22,140 nucleotides of DNA from a virus (IMGVR_UViG_3300037838_000076:1-22140); one strand, 5' to 3'; positions 1 through 21,302 are shown, numbered from the stretch's first letter. A program made the numbers and translations. The notes: generated by a model from the sequence alone, not told the origin.

Positions 1-870
1 GAATTTCTTCACCATGTCTACAAGTGCGTCTGCTGTTGGGAATTTTGGCAACACTGCGAAGAAGTCTGTGCCTGTGATTCTGTCTATGACTTCTTTCTTT
101 AAATCTTTTGTCTTGTCATTGGTCAGTTGTTTCCAGTGTTCAACACCATAAAGGAATTCAACACCGCCAAAGAAGTCTGCCAAGACTCCGTCCATGTCAA
201 GATATACGATTGGCTTTGTGTCTGTCATATCTTCATTATACAACTTCTTGTTGTTTTCGTCAACTTCTTTACCGAATCGATCCTGTATCTTGTTGTACAA
301 CACTTTACCATTATCTCCACCCATTACAATTTTGCTGAATTCGTGTTCCTGTCCTTTCATCGCAAGTTCTCTGGCCTTTGATGCACTGACACCTGTGATG
401 TCACTTGCGTCTGGATCACGTTGTCCTGCACTAACAACTTGAATGCTGTCAAATGTGTATTCAACATCTCCAGCCTTGGTTGGTTTTCCGTTGTACTGAT
501 TTAATAATTTTTGGAATTCCATTACTCTGTCGTCGCCTGCAACCATTATCACCTTTGTTCTGCCTTCCTGCTCAAGCACCTTCATCACTTTGATTATGGT
601 GTTTGCCCTGATGTCGCCAAAACTCAATTTTGGATCTGACTGGAAGTGTTGTCTCAGGTATGATAGTTTTGTTGTGAAATCGATTGGATCTTTGGCAGTA
701 CCTCCTGTGTGTGAAAGGAATACAAATCCCTTGCCATTGACCTTTGCGGCAACTTGCTGTACTTTATTAATTAATTTCTCGTGTCCTATTGTAGGAGGAT
801 TAAATCGGCCAAAGGCAAAGACTGCTGTTGAACGATCGTCTTCCTTAAGAAACAGTTCCCTGAGGTGCAT
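1..870 (-). CDS. Bifunctional nucleotidyltransferase / HAD 5'(3')-deoxyribonucleotidase, 3' part missing
   Basis: The frame is open from the ATG at 870 to the window edge (290 codons), so the C-terminus is cut off. Residues about 15-170 look like a cytidylyltransferase-type nucleotidyltransferase: GRFNPPTIGH (21-30) carries a T/HxGH motif and SASKARELA (162-170) resembles the C-terminal substrate-site motif. Residues about 218-290 start a HAD phosphatase of the NT5C type, with YLDMDGVLADF (223-233) giving nucleophile Asp225 and Asp227. By family the first domain transfers a nucleotidyl group and the second dephosphorylates (deoxy)nucleoside monophosphates; the substrates here are unknown. The start overlaps the upstream gene by 26 nt and has an AAGG ribosome site about 10 nt before it. 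A promoter-like element and an in-frame ATG (228, Met215) sit at the domain junction. Confidence 0.82.
   Translation of the reverse strand, partial: MHLRELFLKEDDRSTAVFAFGRFNPPTIGHEKLINKVQQVAAKVNGKGFVFLSHTGGTAKDPIDFTTKLSYLRQHFQSDPKLSFGDIRANTIIKVMKVLEQEGRTKVIMVAGDDRVMEFQKLLNQYNGKPTKAGDVEYTFDSIQVVSAGQRDPDASDITGVSASKARELAMKGQEHEFSKIVMGGDNGKVLYNKIQDRFGKEVDENNKKLYNEDMTDTKPIVYLDMDGVLADFFGGVEFLYGVEHWKQLTNDKTKDLKKEVIDRITGTDFFAVLPKFPTADALVDMVKKF
235..263 (-). promoter_or_regulatory. Internal sigma70-like promoter at the domain boundary
   Basis: On the minus strand TTGACG (258-263) and TATAAT (235-240) are separated by exactly 17 nt, close to the sigma70 consensus. The -10 box ends 6 nt before the in-frame ATG at 228, which is Met215 of the fused gene and lies just before the HAD domain. 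A transcript from here would begin at or next to that ATG and could give a free-standing nucleotidase. The elements are seen; activity is inferred. Confidence 0.55.
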
Positions 871-1201
871 CGTATTCGCCTTGCTTTATATTTTCTAGTT
901 CTCTGTCTGATATGACTCTGGCAACCTGTTGTCTAGTCTCCTTGGGAAACATGTTGCTGACATCGTCTTGTGTAGTGCCAAATTCCTTTACGTATTCTTT
1001 TGCGGCATCATCCACAAGGTACATCCATAGTTTCTGTGCTTTCTCATGGTCGTACACGTTCTTGGCCATTTTTCTCTTGATGTTCGATATGATTGGCATG
1101 AAACGTCTACGATACAGTTCCTCATTGTTCATGATGTACGTATCCAGCTCGTTTACTGCGTCCGAGTCTATGTTCTCTATGATAAATTGTGATGCTCTCA
1201 T
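845..1201 (-). CDS. Hypothetical protein, 118 aa
   Basis: I do not recognise a family. The protein is soluble, charged and probably helical, with many Lys, Arg and Glu residues and no membrane segment. The opening residues MRASQFIIEN resemble the start of several small proteins in marine T4-like phages, but this is an impression, not a match. It overlaps the next gene (start 870) by 26 nt, which suggests translational coupling. A late-promoter-like box ends 7 nt before its ATG, and no ribosome site fits between, so it may be translated from a leaderless late transcript. Confidence 0.75.
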   Translation of the reverse strand: MRASQFIIENIDSDAVNELDTYIMNNEELYRRRFMPIISNIKRKMAKNVYDHEKAQKLWMYLVDDAAKEYVKEFGTTQDDVSNMFPKETRQQVARVISDRELENIKQGEYDAPQGTVS

Positions 1202-1873: not shown

Positions 1874-2205
1874 TTGTACATCCTTTCAAATTTTTCTGTT
1901 ATCTCTGTTCTACGTCCTCCCTGTGCTTCGAACTCGCTTATGAATTGATCTATTAGATTGGCGGCCCGTCTTCTGTACTCTGGCAATGCGTCTGCTTGTA
2001 ATTTTTGCACAGAACTTTGTGGCACGATCTCAACTATTGTGCCTATGGGCATTGAATCAATCCAACTTCCTGCCTTGCACATGTCATTCTGTATTTTGTG
2101 CAGTTCTGATGTAGGGTTGAATGTAGGCATCATCCTACGTGATTCGTCTACTAGGATACACATCAGTGTTCCAAAATAATCTTCTTTGTATATTTCTTTT
2201 TGCAT
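1861..2205 (-). CDS. Hypothetical protein, 114 aa
   Basis: No recognised family. The sequence is soluble and mixed alpha/beta, with a helical, Arg/Glu-rich C-terminal third. The start codon shares one base with the TAA of the subtilase gene (TAATG), so translation is probably coupled to that gene. It overlaps the 64-aa gene downstream by 13 nt. The neighbouring small genes could form a set with it, but nothing visible links them functionally to the protease. Confidence 0.72.
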   Translation of the reverse strand: MQKEIYKEDYFGTLMCILVDESRRMMPTFNPTSELHKIQNDMCKAGSWIDSMPIGTIVEIVPQSSVQKLQADALPEYRRRAANLIDQFISEFEAQGGRRTEITEKFERMYKWKQ

Positions 2206-5200
2206 TATTTCTTAATTGGTACAAATTTATCTGTCTTGAGATCGTAAACCAAACCATGTTTTGTGTTATTGTCCACGGTCTTGCCAAACAAGTCTGCCTT
2301 CATGTTGCCATCCTTGTCAAAACACTTGGGGTTCTTCATCCATAAAAACTTACAACTGCCTGCGAACTTCTTGACGAAGTTCATCCCTACTTCAACACCG
2401 TCGTTGTTGGCTACACCGGACTTGTCCATTCTGTATTCTGCTGTGAAGTTCACACTGGCGTCTAGATCATCCGCTCCTGACTTGTTGTAGTAGAAGCCTA
2501 TGTTCTTCTCTTTTGTGCCCTGTGTGAGATTGCTGTTTATGTCCGTGTAGTTTATCGTTCCATCTAGATTAACGCTTTCGGCTACCTCCAAATCCATCGT
2601 TCCCGATGTTATGTGACTTGGAAGTGAGAACGACCAACCGAAAGTTGTGTGCGTATCTTTGTGTATTTCATACGCCAACCTGTAAGATTCTGTCTCTATG
2701 TCTGAGAATGATTTGATCAGACTGTTGTCTGTTGTGTTAACATCAGTGAAACCTTTAGAGTAATCTAGTGTCAACACGTTGTTGCCCAACTGGTACGCAA
2801 CACCAATGTTTGCCGATGTCGTGTCATTGTTGTCACCTACAGCCAACACACCATCTGAACTGTTGCCCAGCCATGTGTCCTGTTCACTCATGTGTCCCAG
2901 TGATGTTTTCAGTTTGAATTTGTTATTGAAGTAGAAGTCTTTTCCTACGTTTAATGAATAATCTCCTGAACCATTTTCACTTGTGTAAAAACCAAAATTG
3001 TAGTTTTTAGCAAGATCATAATGACCGCCTTGTGCGAAACTGCCGTACATCTGTTGATGTGGTAGGAATGTGTTCTTGTTGTCCACCAGCATCTCAACGT
3101 CAGAATATTTCCTATTATCTTTTACTGTGAAACTTGATCCCAGGTCCATGTAATAGTTCCTGTCGTAGTCGTCAAGCACCATTATCTTCAAGTTTAGTAG
3201 GCTTGATGGTGCCGCTGTACCTGTGGAATAATATGTGTTGTTCAAACTTACAGTAGGATGATCTACTCTGCCTGATGTTGCCAATCCAACTGCACCCTGT
3301 GGTTTGGTTGCTTCGTTAAGATCCAACATACCCTGACCGTGTACGTTCACGTTGTAGTCATTGCCGAACATATTCTTGTCCGCTGTGTTCATCACAAGTT
3401 TCACAAGGTTATCACCTGCCATGTAAGGCCACATCTGATTCAACACACCAAATGCACCCGTCACGTGTGGGGCCGCCATACTTGTCCCAGAGCCATTGTT
3501 GTAAGCACCATTTGGCGTGGCCGCCATAATGTTGTGTCCAGGTGCCAATATGTAGAAGTCTGAAATTCTGTGAGTGTCGTTACAGGTATTGTTGCTGGTG
3601 TTAATTTTTAGGCAAACATGTCCGGCCTTGTTGCCTTCAACTTCAGTACCGTTCCAGTTACCAACTACGACCATCTTGCCACCCAATATAAGATTTCCGT
3701 TGCTGTCTTCCTCTACTGCCCATATGCCAGGATCACCTGCGTGTGCATATCCTGAATTACCTGCAGAGTTCACTAGTATGATGTCACTATCTGTTGCAAC
3801 TTTCCAGTAACTCGAATCTCCTTGTCCATTGTTTCCAGCCATCTTTTCGACCAATTCACTTGCTTTGTATGTGCCGTCATTCAATTGTGTTACTGTACTG
3901 GTCCATTGATTCCGTGTGTTAGGATCGTTATCGTGATCTGTGTAGTCTTTGAAATATGCACTGTTGTTGAAACTCATGTTCACGGCCACGATGTTCATGC
4001 CTTCTCCACCATTTGATTCAGCAGACTTGAGCTTTGCAAAATCGTGCAAGGCCAACTGTGCTTGGTTGATACTTATTCTTGCGTTACTGTGCCTGTCTAT
4101 GTTGGCACCGACCAGTTTGGCATCAAAGGCTACCCCGTGCGTGTTGTTATTCTTGACTAATGTGTACTCCGTGACAGGACTACCATTCACCCATTTTTGG
4201 GTGGATGTATAATCTCCTGTGGTTAATCTGCCATTGGCATCGTAGGAGTCTCCGGTTTTTTTACCTGCAATGATGCTGGCCACGTGTGTGCCGTGCCATT
4301 GTCTTTCTACAACTGTTCCGTTGTATGGGTTATAATTTTTATAGTAAAGGTATTTGCCATCCAGGTTCTCATGATCAGTGTCCTGCCAAGTGTCGAGTAC
4401 TCCAAGCACTGCACCTTTACCTGTCCAACCCCTCGCATAGGCATCCGCGGCGTTTATCGTATTGAGACCGTGATTGCTATTGTATTCTGTTGTCTTGTGA
4501 TCTGCGACAGTTGTACTCATGTTAGCGGTCACTGTACCTAGGTTGATGTCTTCGTCAGTGTAGGCATTGGAAACAAGTTGTGTGCTTATCTGTGTGCCAG
4601 AATCACTTGTTGTTACAACTCGATCGGCAGTTGATTCACTCTGTAATATATTTTCAGATCTAGTAGATTGGCTTAACTGTGTAGTAGACCAGTCTCCTGT
4701 AACGACGATTGCCGAACCGTTTACTATTTCGGTAGTACCGTCTTTGTATGTCAGTTGTTGTCTAGGAGTTGTGGTTGTCACTGTCCTAGAATCTTTCTTG
4801 ACTGCGTCTGTGTAGTTTCTAGTTCTATAAACTTTTGTTGTGATCGGTGTGGTAACGACTGTATCAACATATCTTACGACTGTCACGGTGGCTGTGTTGT
4901 CTCCGTGGTCTGTGGTCGTCGTCACGTCTCTGTTTGCAGTGTTCGTGGTTGCACTACCTTCCTGTGTTTCTGTTGATGTGTCTGTTGCGTCTGTGTGTGT
5001 TGTTTCTGTGTAGTTTGCCGAATTTTCAGTTACTGCAACAACAGTTGGATCAAGATTTGTTGTTGCCGTTACAGGATTATCGCCTGCCCTAGTTTCTGTG
5101 ACTTCTACAACAGTTGGATCTAGATCTGCGGTTGTGGTGTTAAGCACTGAGCAAGTCTGTGCACCGTTTGATGTTGTATTGTTCAAAAATGTTGTTCTTA

Positions 5201-5948
5201 CGAATGAACATCTAGTTGTTACCGTTGTTCTGATATTTGTGGTTGTAGTTGTTTTTGTTCTAGTTTCATCACCACCTCCTGCGTGTACAGTAGTCCAGTC
5301 CGTGAAACTCACACTTGACGTGCCTGTTGCGTCTGACGTTTCATCGTTGTCATTATTGATCGTCTGTACTGTTTTAATTTTTTTAGTATTTGCATACTCA
5401 CTTGAAGTAGAATTTTTCTCTTGTTCGATAATTTCATTTGCCCTAGTTTCTTTATCTACAAGGTTGTAATCTGCTAGGGTAATAGTTTGTCCATTAGCAA
5501 CTTTTTGTATCACAGGCTTAACATAATTCTGTAGGTAAAGCATGGCCGCATGTGCCTGTTTGAATGAGTCTGAGTTATAAACATGGTATTTCTCTGCATC
5601 AGTTTGATTGCTAATCAGTTCTTCGGTCTGATCCCATAAACTTTTTGCTGTTTGTAATTGTGTAAGAAGTGTGTTGGCTTGATCGATATCTCCCTGGTCG
5701 GGACCTGTGATCACACCCTGTATAGCACTTATGTCACCGCTTGATATGGCGAATTGAAAATCAGATAAAAGAGCACTGTAAGAACTAACCAAACTTGCTG
5801 ACCCAGATAAGTTCGATAGATCTTCGTTGATAAAATTGCCAACATCTCCAACTGCCCCACCACTGCCACCACCGCCACCACAGGCAGTAAGTGAAATACC
5901 AGCCAGACCGGCCAGTACTGTGTTCTTTAATTTGCTCCTAAGTTTCAT
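2205..5948 (-). CDS. Large subtilisin-like (S8) serine protease, predicted lipoprotein
   Basis: 1247 aa. Residues 1-23 form a lipoprotein signal peptide (basic start, hydrophobic core, LTAC with Cys23), followed by a Gly-rich linker. Residues about 40-180 look helical. Residues about 219-480 are very Thr-rich, with two copies of LDPTVVxVTE. The S8 domain spans about 495-850, with Asp519 (GVLDT), His552 (HGTHVAS), oxyanion Asn731 (NSAGN) and Ser823 (GTSMAAPH), so the catalytic set is complete. The last about 390 residues resemble an autotransporter barrel (alternating aromatic strands) but end in Lys-Lys instead of the usual aromatic residue, so export by that route is uncertain. It would act at the cell envelope or surface. 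A GGGGG ribosome site precedes the start, which overlaps the upstream 60-aa gene by 4 nt. Such a protease is unusual in a phage, and its target is unknown. Confidence 0.9.
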   Translation of the reverse strand: MKLRSKLKNTVLAGLAGISLTACGGGGGSGGAVGDVGNFINEDLSNLSGSASLVSSYSALLSDFQFAISSGDISAIQGVITGPDQGDIDQANTLLTQLQTAKSLWDQTEELISNQTDAEKYHVYNSDSFKQAHAAMLYLQNYVKPVIQKVANGQTITLADYNLVDKETRANEIIEQEKNSTSSEYANTKKIKTVQTINNDNDETSDATGTSSVSFTDWTTVHAGGGDETRTKTTTTTNIRTTVTTRCSFVRTTFLNNTTSNGAQTCSVLNTTTADLDPTVVEVTETRAGDNPVTATTNLDPTVVAVTENSANYTETTHTDATDTSTETQEGSATTNTANRDVTTTTDHGDNTATVTVVRYVDTVVTTPITTKVYRTRNYTDAVKKDSRTVTTTTPRQQLTYKDGTTEIVNGSAIVVTGDWSTTQLSQSTRSENILQSESTADRVVTTSDSGTQISTQLVSNAYTDEDINLGTVTANMSTTVADHKTTEYNSNHGLNTINAADAYARGWTGKGAVLGVLDTWQDTDHENLDGKYLYYKNYNPYNGTVVERQWHGTHVASIIAGKKTGDSYDANGRLTTGDYTSTQKWVNGSPVTEYTLVKNNNTHGVAFDAKLVGANIDRHSNARISINQAQLALHDFAKLKSAESNGGEGMNIVAVNMSFNNSAYFKDYTDHDNDPNTRNQWTSTVTQLNDGTYKASELVEKMAGNNGQGDSSYWKVATDSDIILVNSAGNSGYAHAGDPGIWAVEEDSNGNLILGGKMVVVGNWNGTEVEGNKAGHVCLKINTSNNTCNDTHRISDFYILAPGHNIMAATPNGAYNNGSGTSMAAPHVTGAFGVLNQMWPYMAGDNLVKLVMNTADKNMFGNDYNVNVHGQGMLDLNEATKPQGAVGLATSGRVDHPTVSLNNTYYSTGTAAPSSLLNLKIMVLDDYDRNYYMDLGSSFTVKDNRKYSDVEMLVDNKNTFLPHQQMYGSFAQGGHYDLAKNYNFGFYTSENGSGDYSLNVGKDFYFNNKFKLKTSLGHMSEQDTWLGNSSDGVLAVGDNNDTTSANIGVAYQLGNNVLTLDYSKGFTDVNTTDNSLIKSFSDIETESYRLAYEIHKDTHTTFGWSFSLPSHITSGTMDLEVAESVNLDGTINYTDINSNLTQGTKEKNIGFYYNKSGADDLDASVNFTAEYRMDKSGVANNDGVEVGMNFVKKFAGSCKFLWMKNPKCFDKDGNMKADLFGKTVDNNTKHGLVYDLKTDKFVPIKK

Positions 5949-6127
5949 AATATTGCCCCCATCAAAGTGGCACCTATCAAAAATGATAGGATGTATCTTG
6001 TGTATAATGAAAAGGGTTTGGCAATCTTGTAACCATTCTCCCTAAGGCAAATCACGTGTGCATCTATTGATTCAGCCGTGATATTCACATCAACTGTGTT
6101 GATCTGTTCTAAGTCTTTATCGTTCAT
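5945..6127 (-). CDS. Small tail-anchored membrane protein, 60 aa
   Basis: A short polar N-terminal part (about residues 1-42) is followed by one hydrophobic segment (YILSFLIGATLMGAIL, 45-60) that runs to the C-terminus, as in tail-anchored proteins. No family is recognised. It ends in an ATGA overlap with the subtilase gene, so the two are probably translated together, and a strong sigma70-like promoter stands directly before it. It may help the protease at the membrane or simply couple its translation. The -10 box ends 6 nt before the ATG and no ribosome site is visible. Confidence 0.72.
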   Translation of the reverse strand: MNDKDLEQINTVDVNITAESIDAHVICLRENGYKIAKPFSLYTRYILSFLIGATLMGAIL

Positions 6128-6133
6128 GTTATT

Positions 6134-6161
6134 AGTATAACACGTAACTGAAATGTGTCAA
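6134..6161 (-). promoter_or_regulatory. Sigma70-like (early) promoter of the 60-aa/subtilase operon
   Basis: TTGACA (6156-6161) and TATACT (6134-6139) on the minus strand are 16 nt apart. TGT directly before the -10 box makes an extended -10. The ATG at 6127 lies 6 nt beyond the -10 box, so the message should start at or beside the start codon. The -35 box overlaps a 14-bp palindrome. Confidence 0.7.
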
Positions 6162-7084: not shown

Positions 7085-7697
7085 TTTTTACCTTTCTAAA
7101 TTGAATTACTTTTTCTATGGCCTGCTGTGCCAACATGTATATAGGTGTTAGGTACTTCTCTTCCTTGACATAGAAGTAACCACCAAAGCAGTATGGGGAC
7201 TTGTCTTCCAGGAAGTCTATTATGTTGTAGTTTGTGACCAAACAGTTGTCAACATTCCTCTCAAGGAATTCCCATAGGTTCTTTTTCTGTGTATCTGTCA
7301 TTAGCACTTGTGAATCCTTTCTCAAGTACACCTGGTATTGGTATTTGCCGTGAGGCAGTCTAGTACAGCCCACAGTGTCCTTGCCCAGGCTTTTGAACCT
7401 TGGATCAACTGTCTCAGAACCGATCCAGAAATCCCAAAAACGTTCTATCAGCTCTTGAGACTTGTCTAGGTTCGAATAGAATATGGTCTTCCTGTCCTGC
7501 ATACGGAACTTGACGTTCCTCCTGTTGGCCATTATGAAACTGGCAAGATGGTTCATATCAGGCAGGTCCTTATAATCATTTTTAATTTTCAAAAGATGCT
7601 CGTCCGTTGTGGGATAGAACATCAAACTACCCGGCATCAGAAATTCGGTCTTGTGACGGAACTTTCCGTAGTACAACTTATTGTGATGCTTTCTCAT
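7056..7697 (-). CDS. Hypothetical protein, 213 aa
   Basis: No recognised family. It is a soluble mixed alpha/beta protein rich in aromatic residues (FWDFWIG, CFGGYFYV), with a basic N-terminus (MRKHHNKLYYGKFRHK) and a basic C-terminal tail (KVKNGSNKKTTR). It overlaps the end of the clpA gene by 20 nt and the 98-aa gene by 29 nt, so it is translated as part of the chaperone/protease operon. It could be an adaptor or substrate of the ClpA-like unfoldase by position, but nothing in the sequence shows this. Confidence 0.72.
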   Translation of the reverse strand: MRKHHNKLYYGKFRHKTEFLMPGSLMFYPTTDEHLLKIKNDYKDLPDMNHLASFIMANRRNVKFRMQDRKTIFYSNLDKSQELIERFWDFWIGSETVDPRFKSLGKDTVGCTRLPHGKYQYQVYLRKDSQVLMTDTQKKNLWEFLERNVDNCLVTNYNIIDFLEDKSPYCFGGYFYVKEEKYLTPIYMLAQQAIEKVIQFRKVKNGSNKKTTR

Positions 7698-10023
7698 CAG
7701 ACACCTTGGGTTTAAATTGATCTAGTGTTTGTGGTTTTTTCTTTGCTTTGAAGTTCACTGTAAGTTTAGGAACTATATCGTTCGATAGTCCAACATCGAC
7801 CATGCCACCTTCTGTAAGTTCACCAAACAACATCATCTTAGATAGTGGTTTCTTGATCTCGTCATCAATCACACGTTGTAGTGGTCTTGCACCAAGTTTA
7901 GCATCGAACCCTTTTGTCATTAAGAATTCTATTGCTTCGTCGGTTGCATTTACTTCAACATCTTTTTCCATTGTCATTGTGTTCAATTCTTGCAAGAACT
8001 TCTTGACCACAGACCTCATGGTGTCTTTGCCTAGTTTATCAAACTTGATCACTGCGTCTAGCCTGTTCCTAAACTCTGGCGGGAAGAACTTTTTAAGTGC
8101 TTTGTCATCTTCGCCTGATCTCTCGCTCTTACCAAAGCCAATGTTGTTTCTTTCATTTTCTTCTGCACCCAAGTTAGAAGTCATTATCAGTGTTATATTT
8201 CTGCAGTCTGCTTTCTTACCATTAGATCCAGTCACTGTACCATAGTCCATTACTTGTAGGAGCATGTTTGATACATCTCTGTGTGCTTTCTCTATCTCAT
8301 CAAACAACACCACTGCGTGTGGATTCTTTTCCACTTCGTTGATAAACATACCACCGCCCATGTTTGAATCTTCATAGCCTACGTATCCCGGAGGTGACCC
8401 AATAAGTTTAGCAATAGAATGTTTCTCTTGATACTCAGACATGTCAAATCTAATCAACTCAACACCCAGGGTCTTAGCCAGTTGTCTAGCAGTCTCGGTC
8501 TTACCACAACCTGTTGGTCCTAGGAATAAGAATGATCCCACTGGTTTGGTAAGGCTTTTCAATCCTGCCCTAGCAACCAGTATCTTGTCTGTGATAGTGT
8601 TGATTGCTTTGTCTTGTCCGTAAACTTGCAGTTTCATCTTCTCTTCGAGTGTTTTTAGATTACTAGCCTGCTTCTGAGATAATTGTTCTATGCTTATCCC
8701 TGTCATGACAGATATCTCATGAATAATTTCCTCATGATCTATCTTGCCGTCTTTCACGTTGTTCAATCTCAGCCTTGCACAGGCAACGTCTATTACGTCA
8801 ATGGCCTTGTCAGGCAGTTTCTTGTCAGCAATAAATTTAGTTGAATAGTCCACTGCGTCCTCACAGGCTTCATCTGTTATTATACAGTTATGGAACTTTT
8901 CATAGTATTGTTTCACACCTTTTAATATCTTAACTGACGTTTCCTTAGATGGTTCTCCCACTTGAAGTCTTTGGAATCGTCTCATCAATGCTCTGTCCTT
9001 CTCGAAATACTTTCTGTATTCTTCCCATGTAGTAGAAGCAAGTACTTTAATTGATCCTTTAAGTAGTGCAGGTTTCAGCATGTTTGCCATGTCCATGTTA
9101 TTGCCTTGTCCTGTTGCACCAGCACCAACTATCATGTGTGCTTCGTCTATGAACAGTATGCTCTTGCCTTTTTGATCGAGTGCGTTCACAATCAGTTTCA
9201 ATCTCTCTTCAAAGTCGCCCCTGAATTTACTTCCTGCTATAAGGCTGTTTACATCTAAACTCCATACTATATGATCTTTCAAGTATTCTGGGATATCATC
9301 TTTGTTCTTTGCAATCCTTCTGGCAAGTCCCTCCACGACTGCTGTCTTACCAACACCTGGATCACCCACTATAAGAACGTTGTTCTTGTTCCTCCTCGCT
9401 AGAATCTGTTTGAGATCCTCTGTTTCTTGTTCTCTGCCTATTACAGGATCTATCTTCTTATCAAAGTACTTCTGATTCAAGTTCTCACAATAACTTTTAA
9501 GTATTCTATCTGCTTGGTTGTGTCTATGTTTCTGTTCTTGTCCTACTTCGCCCGGCCCTCCCATGCCCGCCATGCCCTCGTCTAGTATAGTTTCTGTGGA
9601 CACAAGGTCTATAAGATCTTGTTTGTTCACTTGATGTTTCTTTAGGAAGAATGCGGCATAACTTTTCTTCTCAGAAAATATGGATATCAGTATGTCTATT
9701 GAACTTACATCCTGTCTGCCCTGGAACAATGCCTGTGTAAATGCTCTGTTCATTAGTCTTTCTAATGAAGCAGTTTTCCTAGGGGTCATTGGTTCACTTC
9801 CCTTTGCAATTATGTCGTTGCATTTTGTATCTAGATAGTCTTCTACATCCTTGATTAATGATCCAACGTTCACTTTGAAATCATGCAATACAGTTCCTAC
9901 ACTGTTGTCTTTGATAAGGGACAGCAACACGTGTTCTATCGTGACGTACTCGTGCCTTCTCTTCTCCGCTTCTTTTACTGCGTTCTCAAATATGTTCTCT
10001 AGTCCTTCATTTGCTTCTAACAT
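7678..10023 (-). CDS. clpA: ClpA-type AAA+ unfoldase
   Basis: 781 aa, about the length of bacterial ClpA (758 in E. coli). The N-terminal Clp_N repeat domain covers about 1-150, then two AAA+ modules. D1 has Walker A GDPGVGKT (220-227), Walker B ILFIDE (289-294). D2 has Walker A GPTGCGKT (502-509), pore loop GYVGYE (546-551), Walker B VVLFDE (571-576) and sensor/arginine region EFRNRLD (650-656). IGF at 628-630 occupies the place of the ClpP-docking loop, so it could work with the host ClpP; no ClpP gene is in the window. There is no ClpB-type coiled-coil middle domain. It follows the deformylase by 3 nt, with AAAGGA just before the start. An unfoldase of this kind in a phage suggests selective degradation or refolding of host or phage proteins. 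Confidence 0.93.
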   Translation of the reverse strand: MLEANEGLENIFENAVKEAEKRRHEYVTIEHVLLSLIKDNSVGTVLHDFKVNVGSLIKDVEDYLDTKCNDIIAKGSEPMTPRKTASLERLMNRAFTQALFQGRQDVSSIDILISIFSEKKSYAAFFLKKHQVNKQDLIDLVSTETILDEGMAGMGGPGEVGQEQKHRHNQADRILKSYCENLNQKYFDKKIDPVIGREQETEDLKQILARRNKNNVLIVGDPGVGKTAVVEGLARRIAKNKDDIPEYLKDHIVWSLDVNSLIAGSKFRGDFEERLKLIVNALDQKGKSILFIDEAHMIVGAGATGQGNNMDMANMLKPALLKGSIKVLASTTWEEYRKYFEKDRALMRRFQRLQVGEPSKETSVKILKGVKQYYEKFHNCIITDEACEDAVDYSTKFIADKKLPDKAIDVIDVACARLRLNNVKDGKIDHEEIIHEISVMTGISIEQLSQKQASNLKTLEEKMKLQVYGQDKAINTITDKILVARAGLKSLTKPVGSFLFLGPTGCGKTETARQLAKTLGVELIRFDMSEYQEKHSIAKLIGSPPGYVGYEDSNMGGGMFINEVEKNPHAVVLFDEIEKAHRDVSNMLLQVMDYGTVTGSNGKKADCRNITLIMTSNLGAEENERNNIGFGKSERSGEDDKALKKFFPPEFRNRLDAVIKFDKLGKDTMRSVVKKFLQELNTMTMEKDVEVNATDEAIEFLMTKGFDAKLGARPLQRVIDDEIKKPLSKMMLFGELTEGGMVDVGLSNDIVPKLTVNFKAKKKPQTLDQFKPKVSDEKASQ

Positions 10024-11555: not shown

Positions 11556-11583
11556 ATTGTACACTAGATCTACCATCTGTCAA
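11556..11583 (-). promoter_or_regulatory. Sigma70-like promoter of the dnaJ-clpA operon
   Basis: Minus-strand TTGACA (11578-11583) and TACAAT (11556-11561) are 16 nt apart, and the ATG at 11548 is 7 nt beyond the -10 box. The -35 box shares bases with the stop codon of the oxygenase gene upstream. Confidence 0.62.
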
Positions 11584-16438: not shown

Positions 16439-17500
16439 TTAGAAATAATCTTGACGTGATCCTTCACGTCTAGTGTCCAGTGTGACACAATGGAAACCGC
16501 CCGCCATCGCTCTTGCATGCCTCATCTCGAGACCTATGCTTTCTATTCCATGCTTGTCAAGTTCCTTACGAAGGTGTGTCTGATTGACATCGCATATCAC
16601 TAGGTTCTCATTCACACTGAAGAAGTTGAGTCCTATATAGGGAGAAGTGGTCGTGACTCCGTTGGCCAAGGCACAACCTACGTCAACAATTTTATCTCCT
16701 GGGAAATATATCTTGTCCCATTTCTCGAATATTTTTGGATACCTATCTGGATTTAATCTGTCACCGTTAAACAATACAAGACCAGGACGCAACGGAAGGA
16801 CTGTGCTGTCAAAATGTGCGAATGCATAGAACTTGTCTGCCATGTGTATCCTATATCCTCTGGGTTCTAATATTGATTTTAACCATTGTGCACCTAGTTC
16901 CGTACCAGAATTACTGACCTGGAACAACAAGTCATTTCCCAGCCTCACCACATTTGGAGCGTCAAAAACAATTTCTAAATTACGGGTGGAAGGGTCTGCT
17001 AAATTTTCTGTCTGATATATTTCATCTAGTAGTATAGGTTTGGGTGCCGAGATCCATTCCGTGCCGCCTTCCATTGCTTCATATAGGAAATCTCTGTATG
17101 CCCTGGTCTCAAAATATCTACTCCTCAACGGTGATGCACAGTCGATAATTAGATTATCTAGAGGCAGTAGTAGATCTCTACAACTGTATGTCTGATATCC
17201 TGTAGTGGTCCATTCTGGAGTTGAAAAGGTCTTGGAGTTATCCTGTGGCGTGGGCCTTCTAACTTTGACGCCTAATTTTTTAAGAGTGTCTGCAAACACA
17301 TCCAGGTCCTCGTTTGATTCGTCTATTATCTTTTGATCCACAGGACCTTCAAGGTCTTTGATGTCCTCATATTTTTCAGTAGTGAAACAAAACGAATGTG
17401 TGCTACGATCCAAAGTTGGGAACCTAGCATGGGTGGCCGTACCAACGAAACATTCCTCTAACGGATCCCAATCATTATGGCTTGATACTATGGTTTTCAT
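16439..17500 (-). CDS. Amidinotransferase, arginine:glycine-type (AGAT/StrB1-like)
   Basis: 353 aa, typical for the family. The N-terminal SHNDWDPLEECFVG (7-20) matches the usual opening. The catalytic triad of the pentein fold is present: Asp180 in VFDAPNVVRLGND, His229 in AHFDST, and nucleophile Cys338 in GGFHCVTLD, which aligns with GGFHCWT of human AGAT. Such enzymes move an amidino group from arginine to an amine (glycine, or an aminocyclitol in streptomycin synthesis). The acceptor here is unknown. The start overlaps the upstream stop by 4 nt (ATGA), so it is the last gene of the four-gene operon from 20053. A guanidine-forming enzyme is very unusual in a phage. Confidence 0.88.
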   Translation of the reverse strand: MKTIVSSHNDWDPLEECFVGTATHARFPTLDRSTHSFCFTTEKYEDIKDLEGPVDQKIIDESNEDLDVFADTLKKLGVKVRRPTPQDNSKTFSTPEWTTTGYQTYSCRDLLLPLDNLIIDCASPLRSRYFETRAYRDFLYEAMEGGTEWISAPKPILLDEIYQTENLADPSTRNLEIVFDAPNVVRLGNDLLFQVSNSGTELGAQWLKSILEPRGYRIHMADKFYAFAHFDSTVLPLRPGLVLFNGDRLNPDRYPKIFEKWDKIYFPGDKIVDVGCALANGVTTTSPYIGLNFFSVNENLVICDVNQTHLRKELDKHGIESIGLEMRHARAMAGGFHCVTLDTRREGSRQDYF

Positions 17501-18609
17501 TGTGTTCTTTCTTTGCCAGGAGAAAAGGACAAGTAAGTCTGTATGCGTTTTAGGTCCTCCTGTGCTTTGAGTGTACAGAACTCGTTGGCAAAATGCAACT
17601 GCACTTTGTTGTCAATAGCCATGTGCAGTATCTCGTTTGCTCTTGCTTTGTCATTTGGTAAACTGTGAATGCTCAATATCACTATGCCGTCTACTTTCTG
17701 TTTGATGTAATGTTCCAGGATGGGTAGCCAGGTCAAAAACTCGTTCTCAAATTGCACACCGTTATTGTTGATTCCTTTATTTGTGCAATAGTCATCTATG
17801 ACCTTCCGCTGGAAATGTAATGGAATATTTTTATCGTATCTAGAATTATTTCCAACGTATGATATAAATGTCATGCCTGTGTAATCTGCATTATCAGATT
17901 GTTCGTAGTCACCTGGGAGTCGGAAAAACCCGCCGGGCTCTCGGCCATTGTATTCCTCACCTTCAGGAAGTACATGCCAATCTATAGCACATCTTGTCAC
18001 TCCGGTCTCGTTGTTAACATTGCCGTGTATGTGTTCCTGTGTGAAAAGGTGCACTTCTCCTGGTGATTTTTCAACAGGGGTACATACCTGCAGGCATCTC
18101 TCCTCAAATTGTTCCAAACTCATTTTTTGATCTATTACTTCTTTTGTCAACTTTCTACTGTCTTGTAAGTTGGCAATGTACATACTGTTAGTGCCAGTTG
18201 CTTTGGTCAGTGGCATCCACATCGTTGCCATCCCTTTACCATTGTTATAAAATATTCCTTGATGGAACGGAAGTCGCCTTGCGTGTTTACTTTGGTCAGG
18301 GATCACACAATTAAGCGTTGGTTGTCTTTTGATAAGGTAACGTCTTCCTTGCAATTTTGATGCTATGTATTCTTCAGCGAACTCATCAAACAACACCATG
18401 TACTCTTTTCTGGCAAACGCTCTCTGGACATGCAAACATAGTTCTGATATCTGCGATGGGTTTACCGCTTCATGGATTGTTTCTAATGATAATACATTAG
18501 GAAATTTTTCTTTGATCACGTTTAGGATCAAATGTGGAAAATTGTATTTTTCTATGTCGTAGGTCAACTTATTGTTCTGCCATTGATCGTAAAAGTATGG
18601 ATCACTCAT
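17497..18609 (-). CDS. Fusion of a PhyH-like dioxygenase and a LIC12192-type sporadic carbohydrate cluster domain
   Basis: 370 aa. The first about 220 residues look like a phytanoyl-CoA-type Fe/2OG dioxygenase: QPTLNCVIPDQ (96-106), PFHQGIF (114-120), TMWMPLTKATGTNSMYI (129-145) and HIHGNVNN with Arg206 in VTRCAIDW. The expected HxD ligand pair reads His116-Gln117-Gly118, so the acidic ligand seems to be absent. Residues about 245-363 match the LIC12192 type (TIGR04323): ISYVGN, VIDDYC, DGIVILSIHSLP and ELHFAxE-like QLHFANE. In bacteria, members of both families are found as separate genes in surface-polysaccharide clusters. Here they form one chain. A GGAG ribosome site precedes the start, which overlaps the aminotransferase gene by 8 nt. 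Confidence 0.72.
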   Translation of the reverse strand: MSDPYFYDQWQNNKLTYDIEKYNFPHLILNVIKEKFPNVLSLETIHEAVNPSQISELCLHVQRAFARKEYMVLFDEFAEEYIASKLQGRRYLIKRQPTLNCVIPDQSKHARRLPFHQGIFYNNGKGMATMWMPLTKATGTNSMYIANLQDSRKLTKEVIDQKMSLEQFEERCLQVCTPVEKSPGEVHLFTQEHIHGNVNNETGVTRCAIDWHVLPEGEEYNGREPGGFFRLPGDYEQSDNADYTGMTFISYVGNNSRYDKNIPLHFQRKVIDDYCTNKGINNNGVQFENEFLTWLPILEHYIKQKVDGIVILSIHSLPNDKARANEILHMAIDNKVQLHFANEFCTLKAQEDLKRIQTYLSFSPGKERTQ

Positions 18610-19531
18610 CTTTCATTCTCCCGTCCCATATCCTAGAAAAACACAGTCTGTTTGTTTCTGTTCCACGATTGTATTCCTGGAATTGTCCGTTATTGTCTAT
18701 GCCAAAGTACACACATGGAGATGCTTCTAGATTTAACTTATCACACATGTCTAACTGCTTCTGCCTATATTTGTTGTATATGTAATCAGCAGGATATCTT
18801 TCCATGAGTTTGATTCCAACATATGCACTCATCACATTGATGTAATTGTAATTTTTTTCATTGATCACGTACAGTTGATCTTCGAACTTTTTCCTCTGCA
18901 TACGTATACCAATCCTATGTAACTCAACAGGAAAGACTTTTGACAGAGATGACACAACATATTCTATACACTTGTGTGTGAGATCCATTTCCTGGTTAAC
19001 AGACAGACTAACGTAAGCAAGATCAAGCATGACCGGCACATCATTATTGTCGCATTCAGTTAATAACTTTTGTAGATAGCCTGGCACTGCACCCGTATCA
19101 GAGAATGGCACACTTATCAACACAACATCATTGGGTCTTATTTCATCCTCGTCAAGCCATGCGAATTTTTCTTTGTACCAAAGGCCTTTCATCATTTGAT
19201 TGTAGAAGTACTCTCCCTTGGCTAATCTTAACCTTTTGGACTCTCTGAAACGTATGTAAAACTGTGCGAAAGATTCTGTGGTGCCCTGGGTGAAACACAA
19301 TTCGCTATAATCCTCCCAACCTCTGATTTTAGGGTGTGCGGAGAACATCCATTGCTTGTACGTTTGCACGTATTTGCTTTTGATCGACTCGTTGTCCAAC
19401 AGTGACTGATTAGATATGTATTCTTTGACTGCATCATCCCTCGTCTGACATGTCTCCGAGTCATGGACACTGTAGGCACCGCCGAACGGTTTCTCCTTGT
19501 TGTCTGGAAGGTCCGTGTACCTCGTGGTCAT
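18602..19531 (-). CDS. PLP-dependent aminotransferase-like protein (fold type I)
   Basis: 309 aa, shorter than usual (about 350-400). Signs of the fold are TQGTTESF (81-88), where the PLP phosphate would sit, VPVMLDLAYVS (165-175) with Asp170 for the pyridine nitrogen and Tyr173, and SSLSKVFPVELHRIGI (194-209), which fits the Schiff-base lysine region with Lys198 and the following Arg. The C-terminal small domain is reduced but ends with NRLCFSRIWDG. By family it would transfer an amino group from a donor amino acid to a keto group. The start follows directly after the oxygenase stop (TAAATG), with no clear ribosome site. Next to an amidinotransferase it could supply the amine that is then guanylated, which is inference. 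Confidence 0.6.
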   Translation of the reverse strand: MTTRYTDLPDNKEKPFGGAYSVHDSETCQTRDDAVKEYISNQSLLDNESIKSKYVQTYKQWMFSAHPKIRGWEDYSELCFTQGTTESFAQFYIRFRESKRLRLAKGEYFYNQMMKGLWYKEKFAWLDEDEIRPNDVVLISVPFSDTGAVPGYLQKLLTECDNNDVPVMLDLAYVSLSVNQEMDLTHKCIEYVVSSLSKVFPVELHRIGIRMQRKKFEDQLYVINEKNYNYINVMSAYVGIKLMERYPADYIYNKYRQKQLDMCDKLNLEASPCVYFGIDNNGQFQEYNRGTETNRLCFSRIWDGRMKDE

Positions 19532-20053
19532 TTATTTTAAAAAGCCGCTGATTTGTAGTGTGTACTTGTCTTCCATGCCAGCATTGGCACCGATGTGTAA
19601 AACCTCACTGTCCCACATATGTCCACTGCCCTGTTTCCAGTGCGTGTCTACTTCATCATTGTACTGTAGGAAGTGTCCTGCCTTCCAGTCCTCGAGATAA
19701 ATGTTACATCGCACCACCGTTCTTGTGTTTTCGGGATACTGGGTTTTTATCTTGTAGAACGTGTCTCTGTGTAAGGGTATAACGTTACCCGGTGGTTGCA
19801 TGATAGTGCTGACCGTAACTGTTTCAATGCCTAACTTCTCCTCCAGTTCATCGTAATCGCATTCATCCTTGTCCCAGAACTTCTGGTGTATGGTTGTGTT
19901 GGCCAACCCGTAAGTCTGAGGGAAGCCACCTGGAAATTTCTCATGTATGTCCTTGAGCTCAACCACTTGGTGTGCGATACAAGTGCTACCTTTTGGTATT
20001 TCTTGTGATAGGAAATGTTTATAGTCTATATCTAGGTGAATTTTTCTATGCAT
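19532..20053 (-). CDS. Fe(II)/2-oxoglutarate oxygenase, Asp/Asn-hydroxylase-like
   Basis: 173 aa. The iron site reads His95-Arg96-Asp97 in NVIPLHRDTFYK and a distal His153 in SEVLHIGAN. A Gly-His-Phe-Leu-Gln segment (126-130) and WKQGSGHMWDSE precede the distal ligand as in the beta-hydroxylase-like oxygenases. The substrate is not evident; with its neighbours it may hydroxylate a small molecule or a surface sugar. It is the first gene of the enzyme operon. A sigma70-like promoter ends 10 nt before the ATG, and no ribosome site is visible, so the message may have a leader of only a few bases. Confidence 0.78.
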   Translation of the reverse strand: MHRKIHLDIDYKHFLSQEIPKGSTCIAHQVVELKDIHEKFPGGFPQTYGLANTTIHQKFWDKDECDYDELEEKLGIETVTVSTIMQPPGNVIPLHRDTFYKIKTQYPENTRTVVRCNIYLEDWKAGHFLQYNDEVDTHWKQGSGHMWDSEVLHIGANAGMEDKYTLQISGFLK

Positions 20054-20092: not shown

Positions 20093-20185
20093 CTGGATAA
20101 GTTCGGACTCATAAACGGTTTTACCGTTTTCCTTCATGGCAGTCAGTGATTGCTTACGATTGCCCTCTGACTTGTATGAAACGTG
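20090..20185 (-). pseudogene. Orphaned 3' end of the M15 peptidase gene
   Basis: Read from the CAC at 20185 to the TAG at 20092-20090, this gives 31 residues beginning HVSYKSEGNRKQSLTA and ending NGKTVYESELIQ. The intact peptidase has HVSYVSEGNRKQVLTA at the same place, starting with its zinc ligand His123. There is no start codon in this frame and stop codons stand directly before the CAC. The two copies differ at most third codon positions, so this is a displaced, diverged native end and not a fresh duplication. Bases 20143-20185 are also the end of the endonuclease gene in another frame. Confidence 0.85.
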
Positions 20186-20796
20186 TTATTATGCCTCCAA
20201 AATGCATTCACTGTTGTTTCTTTTTTACAAGTTAAACAACTTAATCTATATTTTGGACCTGTTGATCTATGAGGTTTTCTCATTTTAATTTTTGTTTCTG
20301 TAGTATGTTGTTTTCCAAACATTGGGTTTCTTTGTCCTTTAGCAATTCCTAGAGTTTTTCTAATTTTGCTTATTAATTTTTTTGTTTGATCTGAATGTGT
20401 ACTGCCTAATCTTACTTTATTTCCTTTGTTTTTTAATCCTATTTTTAATTTTGTTTGTTCTGATAATTTGTGACCTTTTAATTTTATACTTTTTTTCTTA
20501 TTACATAGATCCCCTAAGTTTCCACCTTTTCCACCTAGTGCTATATTATAAGTATCTTTTCTTTTAATAAAATCCTCAGTAACTATTTCTGCTTCTTTTT
20601 TAAAACATTCAACAGGTGTTCCATAACACCACAATATTTCTTTTTTAAAACTGTTGATACCGTATTTTTTTATTGCTTTGTTTAATATTAATCCAGAACC
20701 AAAATATCCATCATCATGATGTTTACTGTTAGTTTTAACGCCAACATAAAATTTATTATTATTTAGATTAGTAGTTTTATAAACGTAATTTATCAT
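20143..20796 (-). CDS. GIY-YIG homing endonuclease with NUMOD3 repeats
   Basis: 217 aa. The N-terminal YVYKTTNLNNNKFYVGVKT (4-22) is the GIY-YIG motif (YVY...YVG). Residues about 105-170 hold NUMOD3-type DNA-binding repeats (GHKLSEQTKLKIG, GSTHSDQTKKLIS, GKQHTTETKIKM). The end has a Cys-x2-Cys...His...His cluster (from CLTC to His207), perhaps a zinc finger. It begins 3 nt after the M15 peptidase stop. Base composition is far more AT-rich than the rest of the window, a sign of transfer. The last 13 residues are read out of frame from the orphaned peptidase tail, so the gene end, including His207, derives from the target gene. Confidence 0.92.
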   Translation of the reverse strand: MINYVYKTTNLNNNKFYVGVKTNSKHHDDGYFGSGLILNKAIKKYGINSFKKEILWCYGTPVECFKKEAEIVTEDFIKRKDTYNIALGGKGGNLGDLCNKKKSIKLKGHKLSEQTKLKIGLKNKGNKVRLGSTHSDQTKKLISKIRKTLGIAKGQRNPMFGKQHTTETKIKMRKPHRSTGPKYRLSCLTCKKETTVNAFWRHNNTFHTSQRAIVSNH

Positions 20797-21020
20797 GCTC
20801 TATACATGACCAAGTCCTGCAAGATACACTGTTTTTCTAGTTGCCGGATCTCTTAATGCAGTTAGAACTTGTTTTCTATTGCCTTCACTGACATAACTTA
20901 CATGAACCCAGCCAGCATCAGGTATACCTTTTTCAGCAAACTCTAAAATTAATTGGTCGAATTCTAAATTATCAGCGATCCACTGAGCAACTGTTTCATT
21001 TGCCGTGCCTGGACATTCGA
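20186..21020 (-). mobile_element. Inserted unit: substitute M15 3' end plus homing endonuclease
   Basis: The endonuclease gene and roughly the last 75 codons of the intact peptidase share AT-rich codon use (TTA, ATT, AAT, AGA, GAT), unlike the first about 80 codons of the peptidase (more CAG, CTG, AAC, GTG, AGG). The left border at 20185/20186 is sharp because the orphaned tail starts there. The right border near 21020 is only an estimate from codon use. Confidence 0.6.
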
Positions 21021-21270
21021 TATCAACTGCTTCTCCTTTGCAGTGCTGTGAGTTGCTTGAACCACCCACCGCTTCGTTCAGTGCCGGTCCCCTGTATCCT
21101 GAGTTGATCACTGTGACACCAAAGTTGTCCCTGACCTTCTGTACCACGTTTGCGAATAATTCTTTTGCGTTTGCTAGGTGTTCTTCACCTGGGGTGTTGT
21201 CTAGGCCTTTTCTAGTCGCAGTTTGACTTTTTGTGAATTCTGCCAGTGTGAAGTTTGCACTCAATCTCAT
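20800..21270 (-). CDS. M15 zinc peptidase, probable endolysin, chimeric
   Basis: 156 aa. The zinc site of M15A carboxypeptidase-type enzymes is present: His76 and Asp83 in SQHCKGEAVD and His123 in GWVHVSY, with SGYRGPALNEAVGG (57-70) before them. Such phage enzymes cut peptidoglycan peptides and serve as endolysins; there is no signal peptide, so a holin would be needed. I chose the ATG at 21270, not 21285, because MRLSANFTLAEF is the usual opening and a late box stands 5 nt before it. The first about 80 codons look native, the rest AT-rich and apparently imported with the endonuclease next door, so the protein seems to be a working hybrid. Confidence 0.9.
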   Translation of the reverse strand: MRLSANFTLAEFTKSQTATRKGLDNTPGEEHLANAKELFANVVQKVRDNFGVTVINSGYRGPALNEAVGGSSNSQHCKGEAVDIECPGTANETVAQWIADNLEFDQLILEFAEKGIPDAGWVHVSYVSEGNRKQVLTALRDPATRKTVYLAGLGHV

Positions 21271-21275
21271 GCAAC

Positions 21276-21283
21276 TATTTATC
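21276..21283 (-). promoter_or_regulatory. T4-type late promoter box GATAAATA
   Basis: The minus-strand box, one mismatch from TATAAATA, ends 5 nt before the endolysin ATG at 21270. It lies in the gap between the 247-aa gene and the endolysin. If active it would give a leaderless endolysin message. Confidence 0.55.
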
Positions 21284-21302
21284 AATAAGTGCGTATATTA
21301 AA

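What the first reader, a model, noticed from the sequence alone, without database searches (positions are those of the whole stretch)
2205..6161. Phage-borne giant subtilase lipoprotein under an early-type promoter
A 1247-aa S8 protease with complete catalytic triad, lipobox, Thr-rich stalk and barrel-like C-terminal region is not a usual phage gene. It is in one operon with a 60-aa tail-anchored protein and has a sigma70-like promoter, not a late box, so it may be made early and displayed on the infected cell. Possible roles are removal of receptors to exclude other phages, nutrient release, or defence; all are inference.
Basis: partly seen in the sequence, partly recalled or inferred. Interest (0 to 1): 0.72.

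Follow-up and report, generated by a model that had tools for sequence, protein, structure and literature searches.

The report
Phage-encoded outer-membrane-anchored subtilisin protease
This large aquatic phage carries, behind an early-type promoter, a gene for a protein-cutting enzyme built to be lipid-anchored and pushed through the host's outer membrane; nearly two hundred phage contigs carry relatives, so some big phages probably trim the surface of the cells they infect.

Summary
ORF 2205-5948 (minus, 1247 aa) is an intact S8 subtilase with lipobox (C23), triad D519/H552/S823, a Thr-rich N-terminal region and a C-terminal outer-membrane-type beta-barrel. The barrel model matches only outer-membrane barrels, including the NalP, EspP and BrkA autotransporter translocators. 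The best Foldseek and sequence-profile match of the catalytic part is the Ssp subtilisin autotransporter. A conserved sigma70-type promoter (TTGACA-N16-TATACT) precedes it.

It is not a one-off. At least 182 viral contigs encode relatives (80 kept, 39 clusters at 90%). D-H-N-S is kept in all complete ones, and 38 of 39 end in the F/W outer-membrane signal. dN/dS is 0.06-0.1. Phage copies form nearly one clade, apart from most bacterial ones. Some carriers of 190-307 kb encode T4-type capsid. The 60-aa neighbour is not a dedicated partner: close relatives keep it and its promoter without the protease.

Best reading: an early, phage-encoded lipidated subtilisin that works like the NalP/SphB1 autotransporters and trims outer-membrane proteins. 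Receptor shaving (superinfection exclusion, protection of progeny) is the leading, untested role. No matching GenBank phage or paper was found. The barrel lies outside PF03797.

The parts
2205..5948 (-). S8 subtilase with outer-membrane barrel, 1247 aa
5880..5948 (-). Lipoprotein signal peptide, residues 1-23, lipobox LTAC|G
   Evidence: sequence; conserved in relatives
5349..5879 (-). N-terminal region, residues 24-200; exchanged for another type in L004
4497..5348 (-). Thr-rich region, residues 201-484 (28% Thr); strongly reduced in L012/L013, different type in L004
3294..4496 (-). Subtilase catalytic domain, residues 485-885
   Evidence: Pfam; structure match to Ssp 8e7f and subtilisins
4392..4394 (-). 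Catalytic Asp519 codon
4293..4295 (-). Catalytic His552 codon
3480..3482 (-). Catalytic Ser823 codon (GTSMAAP)
2364..3032 (-). Outer-membrane-type beta-barrel, residues 973-1195, last strand ending ...VGMNFVKKF
2208..2363 (-). 52-residue tail after the last strand, two Cys, only in the window's clade; predicted periplasmic
5945..6127 (-). 60-aa protein with C-terminal hydrophobic helix; core gene of the lineage, also present without the protease
6134..6161 (-). Sigma70-type promoter TTGACA-N16-TATACT; ATG 6 nt after the -10, so the mRNA is probably leaderless

Best explanation
A phage-encoded, lipidated subtilisin that works like the NalP/SphB1 autotransporters. Shown by sequence and model: signal peptide with lipobox, intact catalytic site, C-terminal outer-membrane barrel with an outer-membrane (BAM-type) end signal, early-class promoter, strong purifying selection. 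Inferred: it is transcribed early by host RNA polymerase; host Sec, lipidation and BAM machinery place the barrel in the outer membrane; the protease comes to lie outside, tethered by its N-terminal lipid and by the barrel; it cuts outer-membrane and surface proteins of the infected cell. The most likely benefit is removal or damage of phage receptors, which would exclude other phages and stop progeny being lost on infected cells and debris. That is the same goal as the early lipoprotein Llp of phage T5, reached by proteolysis instead of binding. Confidence is about 0.85 for the architecture and surface-protease mode, and about 0.4 for receptor shaving as the main role; the figure given covers the statement as a whole.
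For: Intact triad in every complete relative. F/W terminus in 38 of 39 clusters with hydrophobic residues at -3, -5 and -7. Barrel model matches outer-membrane barrels, incl. EspP (Z 13.2), NalP translocator 1uyo (Z 12.7), BrkA (Z 11.8). Catalytic part: best Foldseek and profile hit is the Ssp autotransporter 8e7f. Barrel profile also matches the C-termini of bacterial S8 proteins at 45-212 bits; most of these are proteobacterial, several with the same CGGGG lipobox. dN/dS 0.06-0.1 at unsaturated dS. Conserved sigma70 promoter, same class as in front of genes read as DnaJ, clamp loader and ThyX. Lipidated NalP and SphB1 cleave surface proteins (PMC9289746, PMC9977779). T5 Llp is an early phage lipoprotein that inactivates a receptor (PMC9586334).
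Against: No substrate, timing or localisation data. The barrel does not match PF03797 by sequence and the model is of moderate confidence (pLDDT 62-67). The beta-helix found in Ssp is not seen. The window's clade has 52 residues after the last strand. Close relatives live without the gene, so it is optional. Some relatives have an ordinary signal peptide instead of a lipobox, so lipid tethering is not essential to the family.
Confidence: 0.55

Rival explanations
1. Nutrient scavenging: the surface protease digests dissolved or neighbouring proteins so that a nutrient-poor host can feed a long infection by a very large phage.
For: Carriers are large phages of up to 307 kb with many metabolic genes. 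Related proteins occur in SAR86, SAR92 and other marine bacteria as ordinary surface proteases.
Against: No peptide-uptake genes were recognised nearby. Early surface display and lipid tethering suit cell-proximal substrates better than bulk digestion.
Confidence: 0.2
2. Defence of the infected cell: the protease attacks tail fibres of arriving phages, bacteriocins or other attackers rather than host receptors.
For: A surface location would permit it. The PADLOC 'subtilase' model matches the catalytic domain, but only generically. The N-terminal region varies between relatives, as expected for a partner-facing part.
Against: No link to known defence genes; the match to anti-phage peptidases is that of any S8 domain.
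Confidence: 0.15
3. Egress aid: it weakens the outer envelope or surface layer late in infection to help release.
For: The phage encodes an M15 peptidase, possibly a lysin (20800-21285), so lysis genes exist.
Against: Promoter of early class; located between chaperone and nucleotidyltransferase genes, not beside the M15 peptidase.
Confidence: 0.1
4. Virion protein: a tail or capsid-associated protease.
For: PHROG 'virion structural protein' gives a weak match to the neighbouring 191-aa gene only.
Against: Lipobox, outer-membrane end signal, and barrel hits that are all cellular outer-membrane proteins.
Confidence: 0.03

Closest known systems
Subtilisin-like autotransporters NalP (Neisseria) and SphB1 (Bordetella), group 15 of type Va
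   Same: Lipidated N-terminus, S8 protease passenger, C-terminal outer-membrane barrel; work on surface proteins
   Different: Phage gene with early promoter; long Thr-rich region before the protease; no beta-helix seen; barrel not recognised by PF03797; 52-aa tail in this clade
Ssp of Serratia marcescens (8e7f)
   Same: Best PDB match of the catalytic part by profile (7.9e-43) and Foldseek (4.2e-15)
   Different: Ssp has a short beta-helix after the protease; here only a ~85-residue, low-confidence linker is predicted
Bacterial S8 lipoproteins with barrel (SAR86, SAR92/Porticoccaceae, Alphaproteobacteria)
   Same: CGGGG lipobox, S8 domain and homologous barrel
   Different: Chromosomal; only about 30-150 residues before the protease; most lie outside the phage clade
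T5 Llp and related superinfection-exclusion lipoproteins
   Same: Early phage lipoprotein of the outer membrane; proposed goal
   Different: Llp binds and remodels FhuA; it is small and not an enzyme
Subtilases of Bacillus phages SP-15, Goe3 and relatives
   Same: Phage-encoded S8 catalytic domain
   Different: Only the catalytic domain matches (8-39% of the query); no barrel match

Membership tests
MEROPS/Pfam S8 subtilase (PF00082) | Profile match and Asp/His/Ser triad with oxyanion Asn | tested here: met
Subtilisin-like type Va autotransporter | N-terminal secretion signal (lipobox in the NalP/SphB1 subtype) | tested here: met
   LTAC23-G
Subtilisin-like type Va autotransporter | C-terminal outer-membrane beta-barrel of about 12 strands | tested here: met
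   AlphaFold2 models, NalP/EspP/BrkA among hits; pLDDT about 62-67, 12-13 strands counted
Subtilisin-like type Va autotransporter | Barrel sequence matches PF03797 | tested here: not met
   No match at E <= 1 for 11 members, nor at E <= 0.1 for bacterial relatives; so not filed as a PF03797 member
Subtilisin-like type Va autotransporter | C-terminal outer-membrane end signal (terminal F/W) | tested here: inconclusive
   Met in 38 of 39 clusters; in the window's clade the F (1195) is followed by 52 residues
Subtilisin-like type Va autotransporter | Beta-helix between protease and barrel | tested here: inconclusive
   None in the model; residues 884-942 have pLDDT under 50
Subtilisin-like type Va autotransporter | Passenger translocated to the cell surface | not testable with these tools
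   needs experiment
Superinfection-exclusion proteins | Early expression | tested here: inconclusive
   Early-class promoter only
Superinfection-exclusion proteins | Reduces adsorption of phages | not testable with these tools
   needs experiment

The most novel reading that the evidence does not exclude
Many large environmental phages encode an early, self-secreted outer-membrane protease with a barrel family outside PF03797, and use it to remodel the infected cell's surface by proteolysis: enzymatic superinfection exclusion, a mode of which no example was found in the papers searched.
Probability: 0.35. Interest if true: 0.82.

Novelty: new variant of a known kind. Interest (0 to 1): 0.64.

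Why it matters
Autotransporters are described as bacterial surface tools; here a related design is a recurrent, purifyingly selected gene of large phages, on its own branch of the tree. It suggests phages rebuild the exterior of the infected cell with an enzyme, not only with blocking proteins, and gives a directly testable system for how infected cells are closed to rivals. The barrel family was not recognised by Pfam, so annotation can miss the surface location.

Tried and rejected
Cultured-phage origin: no GenBank phage holds the barrel, and tblastn finds only generic S8 domains; whole-window megablast no match. First genome scan with the window protein alone found no bacterial relative; a scan with a diverse alignment found 57. 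Barrel profile against PDB sequences: nothing at E <= 1. Dedicated pair with the 60-aa protein: rejected by protease-less relatives that keep it. Decaying passenger gene: rejected by dN/dS and the invariant triad. Terminase, sheath and Gp23 searches on the window's nearest relatives were empty, probably because contigs are partial or too divergent; DNA polymerase B was found. Literature searches for phage autotransporters or phage surface subtilases: nothing relevant.

Full report
Observation. The ORF at 2205-5948 on the minus strand encodes 1247 residues. Pfam finds only Peptidase_S8, at residues 510-862 with E 1.6e-24. The leader ends in the lipobox LTAC with Cys23 followed by Gly. The 60-aa ORF at 5945-6127 overlaps the protease start by four bases, and the protease stop overlaps the next ORF (1861-2205), so the genes are packed as an operon. 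The promoter TTGACA-N16-TATACT runs from 6161 to 6134, and the ATG lies six bases after the -10, which suggests a leaderless transcript.

Family. The window protein alone finds four close viral loci. Alignments of relatives widen this to 29 loci and then to 182 confirmed stretches, of which 80 were kept and fall into 39 clusters at 90% identity. Asp519, His552, Asn731 and Ser823 are conserved in all complete members. The C-terminal residue is F in 36 and W in 2 of 39 clusters, with hydrophobic residues at -3, -5 and -7. This is the end signal of outer-membrane barrels (established knowledge of the BAM pathway). Only the window's clade differs: F1195 is followed by a conserved 52-residue tail with two cysteines. 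Lipobox and ordinary signal peptides both occur.

Structure. A model of residues 485-1247 on 18 sequences gives a subtilase fold followed by about 13 antiparallel strands, with mean pLDDT 67. The best Foldseek hit is the Ssp autotransporter passenger, 8e7f. The sequence profile also ranks it first, at 7.9e-43; by VIA-align it ties with classical subtilisins (Z 33.7 against 34.3). The barrel modelled alone has mean pLDDT 62. It matches only outer-membrane barrels: CymA Z 14.2, EspP 13.2, OmpG 13.3, NalP translocator 12.7, BrkA 11.8. Porins score as high as autotransporters, so the match fixes the fold class rather than the family. Sequence tests for PF03797 are negative, for bacterial relatives too. 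In the viral structure library the best match is another S8 protein, from an uncultured Caudovirales phage, and several uncultured-phage proteins there are already named 'Autotransporter beta-domain'.

Variation and selection. Against L003 (dS about 0.2) dN/dS is 0.06-0.1 in every domain. In L004 the first 885 residues are of a divergent type (28-46% identity) while the barrel stays at 83%. In L012 and L013 most of the Thr-rich region is missing. The front part is therefore exchanged as a module while the barrel is kept.

Context. The neighbourhood holds a ClpA-like ATPase, peptide deformylase, DnaJ and a nucleotidyltransferase, and this order is kept in relatives. The syntenic lineage includes loci L111, L112, L113, L115 and L133, in which the protease is absent. 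Four of these keep the 60-aa gene and its promoter; L133 has a promoter-like sequence but no recognised 60-aa gene. The protease also sits between the same neighbours in the more distant L026-L028. Presence in the ancestor with losses is the simplest reading, but independent insertion is not excluded. In other phage lineages (L019, L022, L024) and in L026 and L027 a strong TTGACA-type promoter stands directly in front of the protease.

Promoter class. In the 137-kb relative G006 the same type of promoter precedes genes whose sequences I read as DnaK, DnaJ, ThyX, clamp loader and QueE, while the two TATAAATA boxes lie before other genes (these names are by eye except where family searches are cited). 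This supports early expression but does not prove it.

Who carries it. Carriers of 307 kb, 303 kb and 192 kb hold the T4-type major capsid Gp23. An 86-kb carrier holds a T4-type portal. Thirteen of 17 tested records show polymerase B segments or none by record; the tool's tally is 12 of 17. They are thus T4-type phages, some of them jumbo. The host of the window's phage is unknown.

Origin. The tree of 33 proteins separates 18 phage and 2 bacterial sequences from 13 bacterial ones with full support. One bacterial row (L032, an alphaproteobacterial chromosome next to Mla-type genes by eye) lies inside the phage group. The phage group needs two to three changes of label, so it is old in phages with some exchange with bacteria. 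The bacterial sample was gathered with phage-derived patterns, so closer bacterial copies may exist.

Function. What is shown ends at a conserved, intact, secreted, predicted outer-membrane-anchored protease under an early-class promoter. NalP and SphB1 use lipidation to stay at the surface long enough to cut neighbouring surface proteins. T5 shows that an early phage lipoprotein can close a receptor. Putting these together, trimming of surface receptors is the best-supported role at about 0.4; nutrient release, attack on rivals and egress follow.

Noticed in passing
window 16439-20053: Cassette of an amidinotransferase-like protein (WDPLEE motif, by eye), a 370-aa unknown, an aminotransferase-like protein and a hydroxylase-like protein; a related pair occurs in contig G011. 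May be a small biosynthetic pathway.
   Followed up: no
window 845-1201, 1-870; L002-L005, L143-L183: Many unrelated genes of these phages begin with a similar short leader of the type M(K/R)xxEF or MxLRELF, reminiscent of the capsid-targeting leaders of T4 internal proteins.
   Followed up: no
window 6134-6161, 11556-11583; contig G006: Early-type promoters with the ATG only 6-8 bases after the -10, so leaderless early mRNAs seem common in this lineage.
   Followed up: partly
L037 (contig NZDU01000042.1): A contig binned as a Pacearchaeota archaeon carries homologs of this phage's neighbours and the S8 protein; it is probably a misbinned phage fragment.
   Followed up: partly
L112:14397-14558: In a relative without the protease, a 53-aa lipoprotein lies at the same site; it could be an Llp-like alternative.
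   Followed up: partly
L032:2711-4888: An alphaproteobacterial chromosomal S8 barrel lipoprotein nests inside the phage clade, suggesting transfer between phage and bacterium.
   Followed up: partly
window 20143-20796: SegE-like GIY-YIG homing endonuclease with NUMOD3 motifs.
   Followed up: no
window 7678-10023: ClpA-like ATPase with Clp_N domain, strongly conserved (phrog_4871), in many large environmental phages.
   Followed up: partly
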